Source of the DNA: Jaapia argillacea MUCL 33604
Lineage: Eukaryota; Basidiomycota; Agaricomycetes; Jaapiales; Jaapiaceae
Assembly: GCA_000697665.1 (NCBI GenBank)
Contig: KL197712.1
Location: 1,452,403-1,484,045, forward strand
Direction of reading: 5' to 3'
Length of the DNA stretch: 31,643 bases
The stretch's first letter is position 1, and every line of letters starts with the position of its first letter. The notes below the pieces were generated by a model, which had not been told where the DNA came from, did no database searches, and was given only the letters and a program-made list of their open reading frames with translations. Both the position numbers and the translations under genes were made by a program. Positions 1 to 23,540 of this stretch are shown one piece after another.

Positions 1-115
1 ATCCCATCCCACCCCATCCCACCATCCCATCCCACCCCATCCCACCATCCCATCCCACCCCATCCCACCATCCCATCCCACCCCATCCCACCATCCCATC
101 CCACCCCATCCCACC
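1..115. repeat. 23-bp tandem repeat (C/A/T-rich satellite)
   Basis: Five head-to-tail copies of a 23-nt unit built from ATCCC/CACCCC words, essentially identical between copies, starting at the window edge, so the array probably continues upstream. A pyrimidine-rich tract (CCTTCCTCCTCCC...) follows to about 170. Strand asymmetry is extreme (almost no G on the plus strand). Confidence 0.95.
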
Positions 116-786
116 TTCCATCCCATTGTCCCCTTCCTCCTCCCTCCTCCCCATCCCCTCCCTCCTCCTCATATGATCAAATAGCCCAGGCTCAAGCCCA
201 GGGCTCAGGCTCTCTGGAACTCAAGCCTGAGCCCTCAGCCCCTTGAAGCCTTCATGGAGGCTGGGCTTGGTTGGGCTCCACAGGGCTTGGTTAGGCCAGG
301 CTCAGGGCTCAAAGCCCGGCCTTGCACAACACTACGCGTGCAGAATCGGCAATCACATCAGCCAAAGAACCTGATTTCAGGATGTCCCCCTCACCGCCAG
401 ACCTGGCCAAGTGAAGGTGTGATTAATGACTCAGTGAATCACAACGAAGAAGCTGATTTGCGAGCCAAGATTGTGTATACCGAGACTTTACTAGAGGAAG
501 TTGGGGAGAGGTTGATGTCGATAGGAAGGTTGGGTGGTTGGAGGGTTAAACTCAGTGCCCAACTGCTGGCCATCTCACCTTCCAAGTCGGCATTGTCAGT
601 CATCACAGGCAGGTCTGAGGTCTTTGGCAAACTTAGCTGCCATTATATTGGCATTGTCGTTTGTTTGTTTGTCCGTTTCGTAGCCTTCATCTGTGGTAAG
701 AGGGGGCAAATCACTTTCATGATATGATCGACCTTGGTGTAGAGTGGGACGTTGGCAAATAACTGTGACCATAGTTCAGTTTCAGG

Positions 787-1344: not shown

Positions 1345-1680
1345 TTGTTAGGAAAAGGCATGTTATTCACGGAACACTAGGCCCGACAGGATAAATTAGC
1401 TTGGGGTTAGGTTTGAACATTAAAATATGTTCCACCAAATTGCAACTTTAACTGCCCTGAAAGCCCTGTGCCTCGGCGATTCAAAAGGTCACCAAGATCA
1501 CACGCTCTAGGAGCTCACAATAGGCGGCACCTGCTCGGAGGGCTTTCTACTTCATCTTCCAAGCGAGTAACAGGTCGAAAGGGCCGCAAACAGGTATGGC
1601 ACTGAAATGACCTTGTGTTCGGTATATTCGACTGTCTCACCTACCGCTGCCAATGCATGGCCGTCCACTCCTTGCTCCTA

Positions 1681-1855
1681 CAGCAGGTTACAAATCGATA
1701 GTCAGGTTCTGAAAATTCGTTCACAGTGAGACTGACTGATGGGAGATCAAAAATGTCCAAATATGACCGGTGTCGGTGACAGCTGTTGCTCGATGGTGCT
1801 AGATTCCGTTGTTTCGGGATGTTGTGATCGCTGGGCAAATCTGAGCCTGACCTGC
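1681..1855 (+). repeat. Left terminal inverted repeat of the transposon
   Basis: Matches the reverse complement of 5619-5793 without gaps. Weaker similarity runs on to about 1905 and includes the counterpart of the transposase start codon (ATG at 1876), which here is followed at once by an in-frame stop (ATG GTT TGA), so the left copy does not encode transposase. It lies about 370 bp upstream of the passenger gene and probably belongs to its 5' region. Confidence 0.9.
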
Positions 1856-2221
1856 TTGACGTCCCCCCTCACTCCATGGTTTGACAACACAGGAAATGAG
1901 GCCAGCTCAAGGAGAAGTCTCCATGAGCCATTGCTGCTGCACACTCTCGCGACCCACCGTGTGTGGTAGTCTCACTCTCGTCGCTCCTCTCCTCGCTGCT
2001 GCGCCTGATTCCAGGAGCTCATTGATACATCGCCCCCCCAATATTGCGGGTACTTAGCGAGCTCCCATCCCTGACCCGCAACCAAGGCGCATGTCAAGGC
2101 AGCACCAAGTAACTGCCTGTGCGACGCGCGTTCAGCTCATCTGTGGAGATAAAAGCCCAAAATAGTCAGTAATCACTCCCCGCACTCCTCCCAAATCCTT
2201 TCTCAAAATTCCACTCCTATC

Positions 2222-4267
2222 ATGGCTTATCCTCACAGCAAAGTCGTTGCAGCCCTTGACCGCGCCGTCGAAGAGGCTCATCACCTTGAACAGCATGCGG
2301 AATGACCACCAAGTCCTGGTTTGGCAGCACCCCCACCCCCCCATGGTTTGCCATTCGATCCGCAAGCCGGCCACTATCCACCTGCTTTTGGCCCCCCTCA
2401 CTTTCCTCCGCATGCGTATCTGCCTCCCCAAGCACCATTTCAGTATCCGTATGGGCATGCTGGTGGTATACACCATCCCATTGAGTGGGCTCCTCAAATG
2501 CGAGATCATAATCCATTCAAGCCCCAATACCCGCTCCTCCAGCAACCCTTCCCCCTGCATTTTCACCCTCATCCTCCTCCGTATGCTCTCAATCTGCTGC
2601 CACACCTGCAGTCCCCGCAGATGCCACAACGGGTGCACGTGCGGAAGCTCTCGGCCATGCAGGCTGAGTCGAGTGGTTCTCAAACTTGTATGTACTATCC
2701 TGACTTGTATGTACTATCCTGACTTGTATGTACTATCCTGACTTGTATGTACTATCCTGACTTGTATGTACTATCCTGACTTGTTTTTTTTCACCCTTCT
2801 CATGAACCGGTTACTCATTTTATTCCCAGGTCTCAGTTACAAGATCATTGCGATCGTCAACCCTCCTCGCAAATTCAAAGTCGCCCCTGATATCACGTGG
2901 CAGGACTTCCAGTCACAAGCATGCGCAAACCTTGGAGGACTTCCCGCTACAGCCACCTCCATCGGCTACAAGCTCTCTGGTGACCCAAAGAGGATGAACC
3001 CCACCCCTTTGTCATCGGATGTGGACTTGCAATATGCCTTCGAGAAGCTGGAAGAGAAGCTTCAGCGAGCTCGCACAATTATGTACGGTTTGGAAGTATA
3101 TGATATGGTCCGTACTTTTGTACCTATCCTGACTCAGCGGAACCTTTTTCACGAGATGTTCTTCAGTCTCCCTCGCCAGTGGGTGGAAACCCAACCTCAT
3201 CCAAAAGAGGTACGAAGTGTTCTTGTTATGAAGATATCCCACCCGCGGTACCTCAAAACCTGCTTGACGGCGCTATCACGAAATCATTCTGCCTTCTTCG
3301 GCGTGCCACTGCATGTGAGGCTTGTGGTGGTCACTGTCATGTCACAACTGCGGGTGGAAAGCACAACCACCAACCTATAAGTGACAAGGACCTCTCCTTT
3401 TGGGCGAAGGAAATTGTATGTTTGTCCCTACATTTCTGATGGTCAATTGCTCATCCTTTCAACCCTCTACTGTAGGCACTTGATAGGGCCACAATTGATA
3501 CTCCACCTCAGGGGCTTGCGTTTGACGTTGTTGTGAAGCGGCCAAAACGTGAACCGAAGTCGAAAGTTCCAGAAGTTCATCTCCACTTCAACAACTCCAA
3601 CAACTCCAATCCTCTCATGTTTGGTGGCAGTTTTTTGGGAAATATGGGTACGCCCGATAGCCCCATTTCCATTCCATCATCCTCCCTGGGCAGTTTTACC
3701 CTCAGTCCGAGGATGATGGCATCGTCCTCCCGTGTTCAATTGACCCCGAAAGCGTCTTCCTCCCGGCTTGTCCCTTCACCTTCAAAGCCATATCTTGGCA
3801 CCCACCACCACGATAACTCTCCACCTGTAGACCTCACCACATCACCTCAACCTGGGGGCTTACTTTTGCAAGAACTTTCCTTGGACCCAAACCTCCTCAG
3901 TCTCCCCAGGATTGATGCCGTTCTCGCCACACTTCATTCACGAAGGCCCAATTCCAATTTTCCATCTATGGAAACTGCACTCCGCGGGGTTGGCATCGCA
4001 TATCTTGACAATATCATGCGGTGCACCATTGATGAGATTGTTGGCTACACCAAGCTACCTCCCGTTCTCGTCAGGATTCTTCACGATTACGCTTTGGAAG
4101 TTCTTGGGGGACTTGATATTGTGGGAAGGTTGGATGACGGGCTTGGTGAGGATCAAGAGGCCAACAAGGATGCTTTGAGGAGGTACAATTCACGTCTCAA
4201 GGAGAATAGTGTAACGGATGATGATAGCGAGGCTAGTGAGGAAGTCGCAACCCACCGTCACCATTAG
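2222..4267 (+). CDS. Passenger protein with PB1-like and SAM-like segments; in-frame TGA at codon 28
   Basis: Four exons: 2222-2687, 2830-3095, 3167-3415, 3476-4267 (1773 nt, 590 codons plus stop). All introns are GT-AG and the frames join exactly. Residues about 30-155 are Pro/His/Gly-rich. About 156-244 (SYKIIAIVNPPRKFK onward) resembles a beta-grasp/PB1-like fold. About 245-327 carry a Cys/His cluster (CEACGGHCH). About 490-540 look like a helical SAM-like end domain, followed by an acidic tail. I know similar proteins as multi-copy, uncharacterised families in mushroom-forming fungi; the function is unknown. The clean frame suggests recent selection, but TGA at 2303-2305 interrupts it. 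Either this is a fresh nonsense change, or translation starts downstream (first in-frame Met about codon 93), or there is readthrough. A GATAAAAG motif at 2148 may serve as a TATA box. Confidence 0.7.
2688..2782 (+). repeat. Five 19-bp repeats inside intron 1, each with a donor and a branch site
   Basis: Five exact copies of GTATGTACTATCCTGACTT fill the 5' part of the 142-nt intron 2688-2829. Every copy contains a consensus fungal donor (GTATGT) and a branch-site-like CTGAC. Only use of the first donor avoids an early stop: reading into the repeat meets TGA within the third copy. Confidence 0.95.
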
Positions 4268-4411
4268 GTAGTCGTTTCTCAAATTAGTGTTCCTGCCTTG
4301 CTCACATTATTTTTTCCATACCTTACTGTCGTTTCTACCTCCCCCACTCACTCAAAAAATCTGACTTACGGATCCCTGGTTAATTACTACTATGTGTTCC
4401 AAAACTCATTG

Positions 4412-5593
4412 TTATACATTGTAATGACTATGCTTGAACCAACCCCGAGTCTTCTCAGCCGTGACAGTATAAATGGCTTCGTAAAGCATACAATATGGAT
4501 TTGCAGTTGGGTGATTGGAAAGTTCATTCTGTACATAATCGCGGTTGGCTCGAATCCATGCCTTGATGGACGAGAAGGCTTCTTCAATGGGATTGAGATC
4601 TGGTGAGTAGGCAGGAAGGTAGATAACACGCATACCCCTGGAAGTCAGGTCAGTAGATTATCTCGTTACTGATGGACAAATAGCTCACCGATCCTCGACC
4701 AGCTGCCTCAACTCTGCAGTACGATGAATGGATGCATTGTCCATGACCAGAACTGAGTTCTTCTGAGGCCATGGATTCATCTGATTGAGTACTCCATCAA
4801 TAAAATTGAGGAAGGTGGCACCAGTGAATGATCGGTCGAGAACCTCCGCAAACAAGATACCATTGAGTGAGAGGGCGGGGAGGAGGGAAAATCTGCAAGA
4901 GACATCAGGAAAGAACACCACCACACATACATCAACCATACCGTTTACCACGAACAAAGAAGTCCCTACGACGGGCATGAGAAGGTCCCGGAGCCCAAGC
5001 GTATGCTCGCTGACTCGACCGTCGGTCCACAGCACTCTCGTCAACGAAAACCAGCTGATCAGCACGGAAGTGATTAGCAATGAGCATCTGATACTGAGCT
5101 CGATCATCTGCATCACGCTCAATTGCAGGTCGAGTGACCTGCTCAATGAATTTAGAATTGGCAGCTACATGATTATCCAGGGGCATTCTAACCTTCTTGT
5201 ATGTCAAGCCTCTCCTACGAAGGGTACGATGTATGGTTGCGATACTGACATCTACTCCACATACTTCTTCCAGCCGAATCTGGAGTTCACCCAGATACAT
5301 GTCGGGTTGCCGCTCGAGCAAGCCCTCGAGAAACTGAGAAGCTGTCAGAGGTGATGGCACAACAAACATCGTCAACGCACATTTGCCTTGAAACCAGTGA
5401 GAATGTGGGGGCGGCCACTGCGGAGAGGGACCTTGACCACGTCACCAGTCAATTGATGTAACCTCCGGATGCGGTATATTGTCCGCTCATGGATTCCACT
5501 GAGGGTACTGAGGCGCTTCACCGTCATCGAAGGGTGTAAAGACATACGCAGGATGACATGTTTCACTTCCGCAGGGATGTGTCGTCGAACCAT
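4412..5593 (-). CDS. Tc1/mariner (IS630-like) DD34E transposase
   Basis: Four exons on the minus strand: 5593-5381, 5333-4942, 4892-4689, 4637-4412 (1035 nt, 344 aa), joined by introns of 47, 49 and 51 nt with GT-AG ends. The frame stays open throughout, so the apparent frameshifts are introns. The N-terminus (MVRRHIPAEVKHVILRM, then a helix-turn-helix with RTIYRIRRL) binds the termini. A GRPH linker and a second helical region follow. The DDE catalytic triad is visible: Asp in LVFVDESAV, Asp in VLVMDNASIH and Glu in DLNPIEEAF, with 34 residues between the last two. It closely resembles the intron-containing DDE_3 transposases common in basidiomycetes. The start was chosen because it gives the usual MxRR(H/R)I N-terminus. 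It looks intact and potentially active in cut-and-paste transposition at TA. Confidence 0.92.
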
Positions 5594-5618
5594 GGTGTGA
5601 GGGGGGACGCCGAGCACT

Positions 5619-5793
5619 GCAGGTCAGGCTCAGATTTGCCCAGCGATCACAACACCCCGAAACAACGGAATTTAGCACCATGGAGCAACAGCTGTCACTG
5701 ACACCTGTCATATTTGGACATTTTTGATCTCCCATCAGTCAGTCTCACTGTGAACGAATTTTCAGAACCTGACTATCGATTTGTAACTTGCTG
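5619..5793 (-). repeat. Right terminal inverted repeat of the transposon
   Basis: Inverted partner of 1681-1855. It ends just upstream of the transposase ATG at 5593 and so probably carries the transposase promoter. The terminal ...GTAACTTGCTG abuts TA at 5794-5795. Confidence 0.9.
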
Positions 5794-6265
5794 TAATGGA
5801 GTCGGCAATGGAGAGAGCATCAAATTTTCTGAAGGCGGCACTTAACCGGATTTTTTTTACAGCGAGGAAACGCACCTTCCACGCCAGTGGCAGGCAACTG
5901 CGGTGTCGAGTCGTGGCACTCATCAGAAAGTTGCGGTAGGCTGTTGGCTTTGCATTGGGAGGATCTGTCGTTCATCATTGCAATTTTACTTCGCGTCAAT
6001 CGGCCAGATCCAAATTTTATCTTGTCGCTCTCCATTCCATTACATTGTAATTCACGTCCGGATCCTCGCTTGTGCACATAATGTCCTATCTGCTGACTCT
6101 CTGGAACCCTCAAGTTGGCAGTTGGTGTGGTTCTTGTACTATGGGTCCGTTCCCCACCGTCCCGGCCCATTGTGAAGTTGCTGACGGTTCTTTATGAACT
6201 GTTGCACCCTGTCCCTCATCCAGTAGATTCATTTGACGTCACGGTTGTTCCACCCGTAGACAGAG

Positions 6266-6487
6266 AATAGTATTTGGATTGTTGTTCGGTCCAATATTGC
6301 GAGAGAACAACTCCAGGCTGGCAACGAGGGGGGCACCCCGATCCCACCGCGTCCCATACTGTACAGGAGTGTTCTGTAGCAACGGACCCCAATAGTATTT
6401 GGACTTTTGTTCGGTCCAACATTGCGAGAAAAAAACTCCAGAACGGCAATGAGGGAGGCACTCCGATCCCACCGCGTCCTGTACTGT
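6266..6487. repeat. Two-copy tandem repeat, period about 125 bp
   Basis: AATAGTATTTGGA starts at 6266 and again at 6391. The following roughly 97 bp are alike with scattered substitutions (GTTCGGTCCAA, ATTGCGAGA, CCGATCCCACCGCGTCC), separated by a unique spacer. Probably part of a dispersed high-copy element; no coding function seen. Confidence 0.85.
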
Positions 6488-22747: not shown

Positions 22748-22959
22748 GGTTTCTGGCAAGTCTCAATAATTGAGAACAGCGAGGTACGAGACGATCGAGC
22801 GTGAGCAAAGCCGAGAGTCTAAGAGAGGAGATACGGCAGCTCTCGAGGAGCTATGTCATGTCAATTCAACCATCACATGTACCACGTGGCGCCAAACAGG
22901 ACACCTTCATCGTCTTTCTGAGTCTCTGACATATCATGCGCCTCAATGTTCCTCCTGGA

Positions 22960-23540
22960 GCTCGATCTTCCTTCCTGAACCGCCTGAAGTCGACCACTCC
23001 ATCTTCCTCCAGGCACCCTGATCCTCCTTGCTAAATCTTGGTCTTCCTCCTGCGCCTTGATCTTCGTCCCTTCACCTTGACCTTCCTTCCTGGATCTTGA
23101 TCTTCTTTCCTGAATCTCGATCTTCTTCCCTGCACTTCGATCTGCCTTTCCGAACCTCGATTTTCCTCCATGCACCTTGATCTTCCTCCGTGCACCTCGA
23201 TCTTCCTCCATGCACCTCGATCTTCCTCCATGCACCTTGATCTTCCTCCCTGCGCCTTGATCTTCCTTCCTGAATCTCGATCTTCTTCCCTGCACTTCGA
23301 TCTGCCTTTCCGAACCTCGATTTTCCTCCGTGCACCTTGATCTTCCTCCATGCACCTTGATCTTCCTCCATGCACCTTGATCTTCTTCCCTGCGCCTTGA
23401 TCTTCCTTCCTGAATCTCGATCATCCTCCCTAAGCTTTGATCTTCCTCACTCCCCTTTGATCTGCCTTCATGAACCTCGATATTCCCCCCTGCACCTTGA
23501 TCCTGCACGCTGATCCCCGATCTTCCTTCCTGAGCGCCCC
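22960..23540. repeat. 20-bp minisatellite with 160-bp higher-order period
   Basis: About 28 units of a 20-nt word of the type TGATCTTCCTCCATGCACCT. A block of eight units (starting near 23097, with TCTGCCTTTCCGAACC as a marker unit) recurs 160 bp later. On the minus strand the unit has no stop in any frame, so all three frames are open over roughly 23072-23371, giving repetitive peptides (GRSRxREEDQGAxRKIxVH). I regard the long open frame 22873-23508 as a by-product of the repeat. Confidence 0.9.

What the first reader, a model, noticed from the sequence alone, without database searches (positions are those of the whole stretch)
1681..5793. Tc1/mariner element that seems to carry a non-transposase passenger gene
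Two 175-bp inverted termini (about six mismatches, no gaps), each ending at TA, enclose a complete DD34E transposase gene and a convergent four-exon gene for a PB1/SAM-like protein. Tc1/mariner elements normally encode only the transposase. A two-gene element would explain why this passenger family is multi-copy in mushroom genomes, and it might modify transposition or act on the host. The transposase lacks a terminal repeat on its own left side, which argues against a simple nested single-gene element.
Basis: partly seen in the sequence, partly recalled or inferred. Interest (0 to 1): 0.85.

Follow-up and report, generated by a model that had tools for sequence, protein, structure and literature searches.

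The report
Two-gene Tc1/mariner transposon in a fungus
This is a jumping gene of a very common class, but besides its usual single enzyme gene it carries a second gene that travels and evolves with the first, and the same pairing recurs in most related elements of this fungal genome.

Summary
Window 1681-5793 is a 4,113-bp element with 175-bp terminal inverted repeats (6 mismatches, TA on both sides) enclosing a DD34E transposase and a convergent second gene. The pairing is not an accident of this locus. Of 21 transposase loci of this kind found in the genome, 18 have a convergent second gene of the same broad family; the other three are fragments or truncated. All 13 elements whose two ends I located enclose both genes, 11 with TA on both sides. 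Four copies of one subfamily are about 95% identical across both genes up to the repeats, in different flanks: the pair moved as a unit. The two genes diverge together (Mantel r 0.50-0.69, P 2e-4), and the second shows protein-level constraint. Two unrelated Tc1-type elements in the genome have one gene only. I read this as an undescribed lineage of two-gene Tc1/mariner elements whose second protein is probably an accessory factor; its function is not shown. PB1/SAM labels stay unproven, relatedness between passenger groups rests on one short module, and the focal passenger has an early in-frame TGA. Ciliate TBE and Tec are multi-gene precedents, so this is a new variant, not a new kind.

The parts
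1679..1680 (.). TA flanking the left terminus
   Evidence: sequence
1681..1855 (+). left terminal inverted repeat, 175 bp (CAGCAGGTTACAAATCGATAG...)
   Evidence: matches 5619-5793 without gaps, 6 mismatches
1863..1891 (+). degraded extension of the left repeat holding a copy of the transposase's 5' leader and first codons (ATGGTTTGACAACACA against ATGGTTCGACGACACA)
   Evidence: inverted repeat I2, 83% over 46 nt; alignments
2222..2687 (+). passenger exon 1 (predicted), proline-rich; in-frame TGA at 2303-2305
   Evidence: translation; intron boundary placed by eye
2684..2784 (+). 19-bp tandem repeat, 5.3 copies, over the predicted donor site and intron 1 of the passenger
   Evidence: 28% identical to the same region of the C15 and C40 passengers; hit by the C40 passenger query at E 2.6e-7
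3216..3415 (+). passenger exon 3 (predicted, start approximate): shared C..C..H..WA module
   Evidence: 46% identical relative at C18
4415..5593 (-). Tc1/mariner transposase, DD34E, three predicted introns (5394-5342, 4941-4893, 4688-4638), start ATG at 5593
5619..5793 (-). right terminal inverted repeat, 175 bp
5794..5795 (.). TA flanking the right terminus

Best explanation
Window 1681-5793 is one copy of a lineage of two-gene Tc1/mariner DNA transposons. TA-flanked terminal inverted repeats bound a transposase gene at one end and a second gene at the other, tail to tail. SHOWN by sequence: the two genes lie inside the same repeats in element after element, one subfamily has moved as a two-gene unit, and the genes have diverged together with protein-level constraint. 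INFERRED: each repeat supplies the promoter of the gene next to it; the second protein is nuclear (a basic stretch recurs beside its conserved module or its C-terminal region); it works in trans as an accessory factor that helps the transposase (synapsis, end binding or import) or tunes element expression. Nearest functional analogies, recalled: mudrB of maize MuDR and the Myb-like second protein of PIF/Harbinger. The confidence below is for the two-gene mobile element; for the accessory role itself I give about 0.55.
For: Termini and both genes. Recurrence: 18 of 21 transposase loci (a lower-bound list). Passenger groups: A (focal, C18, C22, C40, C15) linked by tblastn, E 2e-6 or better; B (C31, C16, C52, C1, C34, C61, C64, C33) linked to each other by protein search; C (C4b, C23) likewise; C41 and C49 by a profile of the middle module built without them, E 0.0021 and 0.0024; C9 by position and weak similarity only. 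Links between groups: B to A by module profile, probability 80.8%; C to A by weak hits E 0.04 and 0.11 and the shared motif. Both ends located in 13 elements, 13 of 13 with both genes, 11 with TA at both sides. Mobility: C1/C16/C61/C52 are 94.7-95.6% identical; homology starts at the left repeat in all pairs compared and ends at the right repeat in C1-C61 and C61-C52 (C16 is interrupted there). Co-divergence: Mantel r 0.69 (19 loci), 0.50 (15, one per subfamily), 0.64 (11), P 2e-4, the floor of 5000 permutations. Constraint: passenger pN/pS 0.177/0.739 (C4b-C23), 0.26-0.27/0.67-0.71 (C31 against the four C1-family copies); transposase 0.17-0.18/0.67-0.70 in the same C31 comparisons. Passenger queries, loci beside a transposase: 2 of 2, 8 of 8, 2 of 2 strong, 5 of 5. 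Control: two other Tc1-type elements, 1,557 and 1,560 bp, hold the transposase alone by ORF inspection.
Against: Nothing here shows what the second protein does. Its folds are unproven: no Pfam match, single-sequence models with mean pLDDT 47.2 and 46.5, weak PDB sequence hits only, the best of them for one profile being designed barrel proteins. The focal copy has an in-frame TGA in exon 1. No empty site. Between groups only the middle module is recognisable, its segments were picked by eye, C18 lacks its first cysteine, and the module profile of group A and C did not find group B. Constraint is weaker in some pairs: passenger C31-C64 0.423/0.694, C64-C33 0.098/0.156; transposase C1-C16 0.057/0.037; synonymous sites are near saturation in the old pairs and only stretches recovered by tblastn were compared. 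The inverted repeat of C31 is weak (E 0.038). Ends were not both found for 5 of the 18 (C18, C22, C23, C33, C9). The censuses miss divergent copies (C22 was not found), and none was run with the C41, C49 or C9 passenger. Three hits at E 0.26-0.84 (C45, C4:1583313, C14:562976) have no transposase within 1.5 kb. One genome only.
Confidence: 0.9

Rival explanations
1. The second protein acts against host silencing (chromatin or small-RNA control) and not on the transposition reaction itself, as VANC does for VANDAL elements (recalled).
For: Basic, nuclear-type stretches next to the conserved module or C-terminal region (translations); constraint on the protein; kept in 13 of 13 complete elements of this clade while one-gene elements of another type exist beside it.
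Against: No chromatin-reader, methyl-handling or RNA-silencing domain was detected in the pieces scanned. Nothing here separates this from a direct role in transposition.
Confidence: 0.25
2. The passenger is a selfish hitch-hiker gene inside the transposon that benefits itself or the host (for example interference with rival elements), neither helping nor hindering its carrier.
For: Constraint and co-mobility would look the same.
Against: No clear free or differently carried passenger was found by four queries, and 0 of 13 complete elements has lost it; 13 is a small number.
Confidence: 0.1
3. The second gene is a host gene captured by the focal element, cargo without a role in the element.
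For: DNA transposons are known to capture host genes (recalled); the focal copy has an early in-frame TGA.
Against: The same gene family sits at the same place and orientation in many diverged subfamilies and co-diverges with the transposase; no clear counterpart outside elements was found; constraint.
Confidence: 0.04
4. A one-gene transposon lies beside an unrelated gene, and the left repeat comes from a second, truncated copy.
For: The left arm also carries a degraded copy of the transposase's start-codon region, as a truncated inverted copy would.
Against: Both arms are 97% alike and TA-flanked; the repeat DNA was found only as this pair in the genome; 13 of 13 complete elements have the same layout; the four-copy subfamily moved as a unit.
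Confidence: 0.03

Closest known systems
TBE and Tec elements of ciliates (Tc1/mariner superfamily)
   Same: DD34E transposase plus further ORFs inside the same terminal repeats, one in the complement in Tec; purifying selection reported for ORFs of TBE (PMC7325037, section 8 read)
   Different: Three ORFs; the extra ones are a zinc-finger protein and an ORF of unknown function in TBE and, in Tec, a site-specific recombinase among others; ciliate hosts. Relationship of the extra proteins was not tested here.
Tc1 family elements, including TIR_1 of the mushroom Pleurotus ostreatus
   Same: DDE_3 transposase and TA duplication; TIR_1 has long repeats of 214 nt (PMC4905642, passages read)
   Different: TIR_1 is listed at 1.6 kb with a transposase, and no second gene is mentioned in the passages I saw; Tc1 elements have a single ORF and a mean length of about 1300 bp (PMC7325037, passages read). 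The window element is 4.1 kb with two genes.
MuDR of maize (Mutator superfamily)
   Same: Two genes, mudrA and mudrB, each with an adjacent terminal repeat, TIRA and TIRB (PMC8224964, passages read); convergent transcription from the repeats is recalled
   Different: Unrelated transposase superfamily; likeness of the second protein to MURB was not tested. The resemblance is in layout only.
PIF/Harbinger elements
   Same: Second gene encoding an accessory protein of a DNA transposon (recalled)
   Different: Different superfamily and target site; the Myb-like second protein was not compared (recalled, not tested).

Membership tests
Tc1/mariner (IS630-Tc1-mariner) superfamily | DDE/D transposase of DDE_3 type | tested here: met
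   PF13358 E 4.7e-29, over its cut-off; HTH_Tnp_Tc3_2 only below its cut-off
Tc1/mariner (IS630-Tc1-mariner) superfamily | catalytic spacing, DD34E for Tc1 | tested here: met
   34 residues between second D and E
Tc1/mariner (IS630-Tc1-mariner) superfamily | terminal inverted repeats flanked by TA | tested here: met
   TA on both sides in 11 of 13 elements with both ends located
Tc1/mariner (IS630-Tc1-mariner) superfamily | TA target duplication shown by an empty site | tested here: inconclusive
   joined flanks match only the two flanks themselves
Tc1 family in the narrow sense | single ORF, about 1.3 kb | tested here: not met
   4,113 bp and two genes; 2.9-4.1 kb in 11 of the other 12 elements and 4.4 kb in C16, which holds a nested insertion
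TBE/Tec-type multi-gene Tc1/mariner | extra ORFs homologous to those of TBE or Tec | not tested
   no ciliate sequences were searched
PB1 domain proteins | PB1 fold or Pfam match | tested here: inconclusive
   no PB1 match in Pfam; profile against PDB sequences gave one hit, E 0.98, an RNA editase; model mean pLDDT 46.5
SAM domain proteins | SAM fold or Pfam match | tested here: inconclusive
   no SAM match in Pfam; PDB sequence profiles: group B best hit designed barrel proteins E 0.007, SLA1 E 0.059; groups A and C NusA E 0.004, SAMSN-1 E 0.95; model mean pLDDT 47.2

The most novel reading that the evidence does not exclude
A whole undescribed lineage of Tc1/mariner elements in mushrooms is an obligate two-protein transposon: the second protein, with a shared C..C..H..WA module between two further regions, is required for transposition or for escape from silencing. 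Families of unannotated mushroom proteins would then be transposon accessory proteins and not host genes.
Probability: 0.5. Interest if true: 0.85.

Novelty: new variant of a known kind. Interest (0 to 1): 0.72.

Why it matters
Tc1/mariner transposases are generally regarded as self-sufficient, and for that reason serve as gene-transfer tools (recalled). A fungal lineage in which a second gene has stayed with the transposase through deep divergence suggests that some members are not, or that they need help against the host. It gives a concrete test system (transposase with and without the second protein), explains a set of unannotated genes as transposon genes, and warns that such genes could be miscounted as host gene families in mushroom genomes.

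Tried and rejected
Rejected: simple nesting, chance neighbours and host-gene capture (see rivals). Led nowhere: empty-site search; single-sequence structure models of two focal regions, mean pLDDT 47.2 and 46.5, not used for fold searches; PDB sequence searches; profile comparison of the C-terminal regions between groups, nothing convincing in nine comparisons, the best being B against C9 over 17 columns at 62%. One search ran tblastx but my script printed only its error stream; I replaced it by open-frame peptides with tblastn. In one search the codon comparison of the C1 passenger exon with its three sisters failed because the typed peptide was not found as one open frame.

No listed title or abstract start described a fungal Tc1/mariner element with a second gene, but lists were cut (25 of 34, 15 of 96) and only open-licence papers are held, so this is no proof that it is unpublished. 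Passages only were seen of PMC4905642, PMC8224964, PMC7599177 and PMC10799480; passages plus section 8 of PMC7325037. Muszewska and others 2017 on fungal cut-and-paste transposons, a likely place, is not held.

Cautions: transposase loci without a passenger are C14 (N-terminal fragment), C57 (two short pieces) and C66 (its downstream side is retroelement-like coding, judged by eye). The C1 locus holds 448 masked bases. The Mantel test uses open-frame scores, not trees; 19 of 21 loci entered (C14 and C66 left out); the loci are not independent, and between groups passenger similarity is mostly zero; nearest-partner agreement is 10 of 15, 8 of 11 and 8 of 11 in the three sets.

Full report
WHAT WAS CLAIMED.

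The arms 1681-1855 and 5619-5793 match over 175 bases without gaps with six mismatches, and TA lies just outside each. The match falls abruptly after 175 bases but continues in degraded form to 1891/5578. Two searches of the 43.7-Mb genome found this repeat DNA only as this pair. The minus-strand gene starting at 5593 is a DDE_3 transposase (E 4.7e-29) with DD34E spacing and three predicted introns; one search lists the alternatives for the first intron. The plus-strand gene fits four exons placed by eye, about 2222-4267. Two corrections: codon 28 of the first exon is TGA (2303-2305, translation), so this copy may be broken or may start later; and no PB1 or SAM domain is recognised by Pfam in the pieces scanned.

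THE SECOND GENE RECURS. A protein search with the transposase gave 53 matches at 21 loci (the tool warns that such counts are lower bounds). At 18 of the 21 a second gene lies downstream in convergent orientation. They fall into groups. Group A is the focal element, C18, C22, C40 and C15, linked to the focal passenger by tblastn with E from 4e-51 to 2e-6. Group B is C31, C16, C52, C1, C34, C61, C64 and C33, found together by one protein query. Group C is C4b (the second element on contig 4) and C23. C41 and C49 match a profile of the middle module built without them, E 0.0021 and 0.0024, the best matches among loci not used in building it, with C22 next at 0.0034. C9 rests on position and weak similarity. 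The groups are linked to each other only weakly: B to A by the module profiles (probability 80.8%), though the A/C profile did not itself find B; C to A by hits at E 0.04 and 0.11 and the shared motif. The three loci without a second gene are C14 and C57, which are fragments, and C66, whose downstream side is retroelement-like.

THE TERMINAL REPEATS ENCLOSE BOTH GENES. I located both ends in 13 elements (focal, C40, C15, C1, C61, C52, C16, C4b, C34, C49, C41, C64, C31). The inverted repeat of C31 is weak by itself (E 0.038). All 13 hold both genes. Eleven have TA at both sides; C15 and C52 do not. Termini begin with CAG, except C49 (TTGCC) and the right end of C31 (TAG). Lengths run from 2.9 to 4.1 kb, and 4.4 kb for C16 with its nested insertion, against the 1.3 kb usual for Tc1 (PMC7325037, passages). 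For the other five passenger loci (C18, C22, C23, C33, C9) both ends were not found. As a control, the DDE_3 census gave three further loci of another Tc1 type. Two are complete, 1,557 and 1,560 bp between termini, with the transposase alone by ORF inspection; the third, C10, is a fragment. So one-gene elements exist in this genome and the method sees them.

THE PAIR MOVES AS A UNIT. C1, C16, C61 and C52 are copies of one subfamily, 94.7-95.6% identical over about 3.1 kb spanning both genes. In the four pairs compared, homology begins at the left repeat. It ends at the right repeat in C1-C61 and C61-C52; C16 is interrupted inside its right repeat by a nested insertion, so its comparisons stop there. 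Part of C1 is masked, and C52 has an internal insertion. No homology was reported outside the repeats in the flanks compared (plus strand, E 1e-5). No empty site was found for the focal element: each flank occurs once.

THE GENES DIVERGE TOGETHER. Similarity matrices of transposase and passenger agree: Spearman-Mantel r 0.69 for 19 of the 21 loci (C14 and C66 left out), 0.50 for 15 (one per subfamily), 0.64 for the 11 of these with any passenger similarity, each P 2e-4, the floor of 5000 permutations. Nearest partners agree in 10 of 15, 8 of 11 and 8 of 11 cases. Trees were not built.

THE SECOND GENE IS UNDER CONSTRAINT. Nonsynonymous/synonymous proportions for passenger stretches recovered by tblastn are 0.177/0.739 (C4b-C23, 85 codons), 0.26-0.27/0.67-0.71 (C31 against the four C1-family copies), 0.328/0.754 (C31-C34), 0.423/0.694 (C31-C64) and 0.347/0.854 (focal-C18, 76 codons). 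The transposase gives 0.17-0.18/0.67-0.70 (C31 against the C1 family), 0.314/0.741 (C31-C34) and 0.255/0.83 (C31-C64). So the passenger is constrained, somewhat less than the transposase. Between young copies the signal weakens: passenger C64-C33 0.098/0.156 (transposase 0.07/0.196), transposase C1-C16 0.057/0.037 and C1-C61 0.058/0.036. That fits decay after insertion. Synonymous sites are near saturation in the old comparisons, so ratios are rough.

NO CLEAR FREE PASSENGERS. Four passenger queries found 2 loci, 8 loci, 2 strong loci and 5 loci, all beside a transposase. One search also gave C40 at E 0.04, beside a transposase, and three hits at E 0.26-0.84 with no transposase within 1.5 kb; I take those three as chance. 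The censuses are not exhaustive: C22 was found by none of them, and none was run with the C41, C49 or C9 passenger.

WHAT THE SECOND PROTEIN IS. The common core is a module of about 50 residues, mostly C-x(2)-[CH]...C...H...WA..IV, invariant in C, C, H, W and A over the eight members; C18 lacks the first cysteine, and group B (C1, C31, C34, C64) keeps little more than the later part. PDB sequence profiles gave only weak hits: designed barrel proteins 0.007 and SLA1 0.059 for group B, NusA 0.004 and SAMSN-1 0.95 for groups A and C, an RNA editase 0.98 for the N-terminal region. Single-sequence models were useless. Basic stretches such as KRPKREPKSK (focal) and KRKR (C1; C31) recur beside the module or the C-terminal region, so a nuclear place is likely (my reading, not tested).

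MECHANISM. Shown: the layout, co-mobility of one subfamily, co-divergence and constraint. Inferred: each repeat carries the promoter for the gene next to it; the second protein enters the nucleus and assists or regulates transposition. If it were dispensable cargo, one-gene deletion forms should exist among complete elements of this clade; 0 of 13 is one, though 13 is a small number. I give about 0.55 to a direct or regulatory accessory role, 0.25 to anti-silencing and 0.1 to a self-serving passenger.

COMPARISON. Multi-gene Tc1/mariner elements are known in ciliates (TBE, Tec; PMC7325037 section 8), so the kind is not new. A mushroom Tc1-mariner described earlier, TIR_1 of Pleurotus, is 1.6 kb with 214-nt repeats and a transposase (PMC4905642, passages). 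The layout resembles MuDR, with a gene next to each terminal repeat (PMC8224964, passages). Nine term searches of the open-licence library listed no fungal Tc1/mariner element with a second gene; two of the lists were cut.

VERDICT. The finding is broader than the window: in this genome the two-gene form is the rule for this transposase clade.

Noticed in passing
window 1863-1891: The left terminal repeat runs on into a degraded copy of the transposase's 5' leader and start codon, with CG-to-TG/CA changes, as if the passenger-side end had once been copied from the transposase-side end.
   Followed up: partly
window 2684-2784: A perfect 19-bp tandem repeat (5.3 copies) sits across the predicted donor site and intron 1 of the passenger.
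   Followed up: no
window 6266-6487: Two 97-nt direct repeats, 87% alike, starting 125 bases apart, just right of the element.
   Followed up: no
window 22873-23508: A 211-aa repetitive ORF (minus strand) overlaps a 20-bp/160-bp minisatellite at 23001-23502.
   Followed up: no
window 1-126: The window begins in an ATCCC-type tandem array (23-bp unit).
   Followed up: no
L044 250-587 and 4807-5145: The C15 two-gene element sits between a further, larger inverted repeat (339 bp, 95%) that is not its own terminus.
   Followed up: partly
C16 element, right end (stitched coordinates 4352-5665): Another sequence with 107-bp inverted repeats is inserted inside the right terminal repeat of the C16 copy.
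   Followed up: no
G000:C66:1-1200 (L059): Retroelement-like coding (judged by eye) abuts a transposase fragment related to that of C49.
   Followed up: no
genome G000: KDZ-type transposase matches are many: 71, against 27 matches to the DDE_3 family.
   Followed up: no
L067 and L068: Two ordinary Tc1-type elements with ACACTGAGGGACAAAAGT termini, about 1.56 kb; the C28 copy has a 368-residue stop-to-stop transposase frame.
   Followed up: partly
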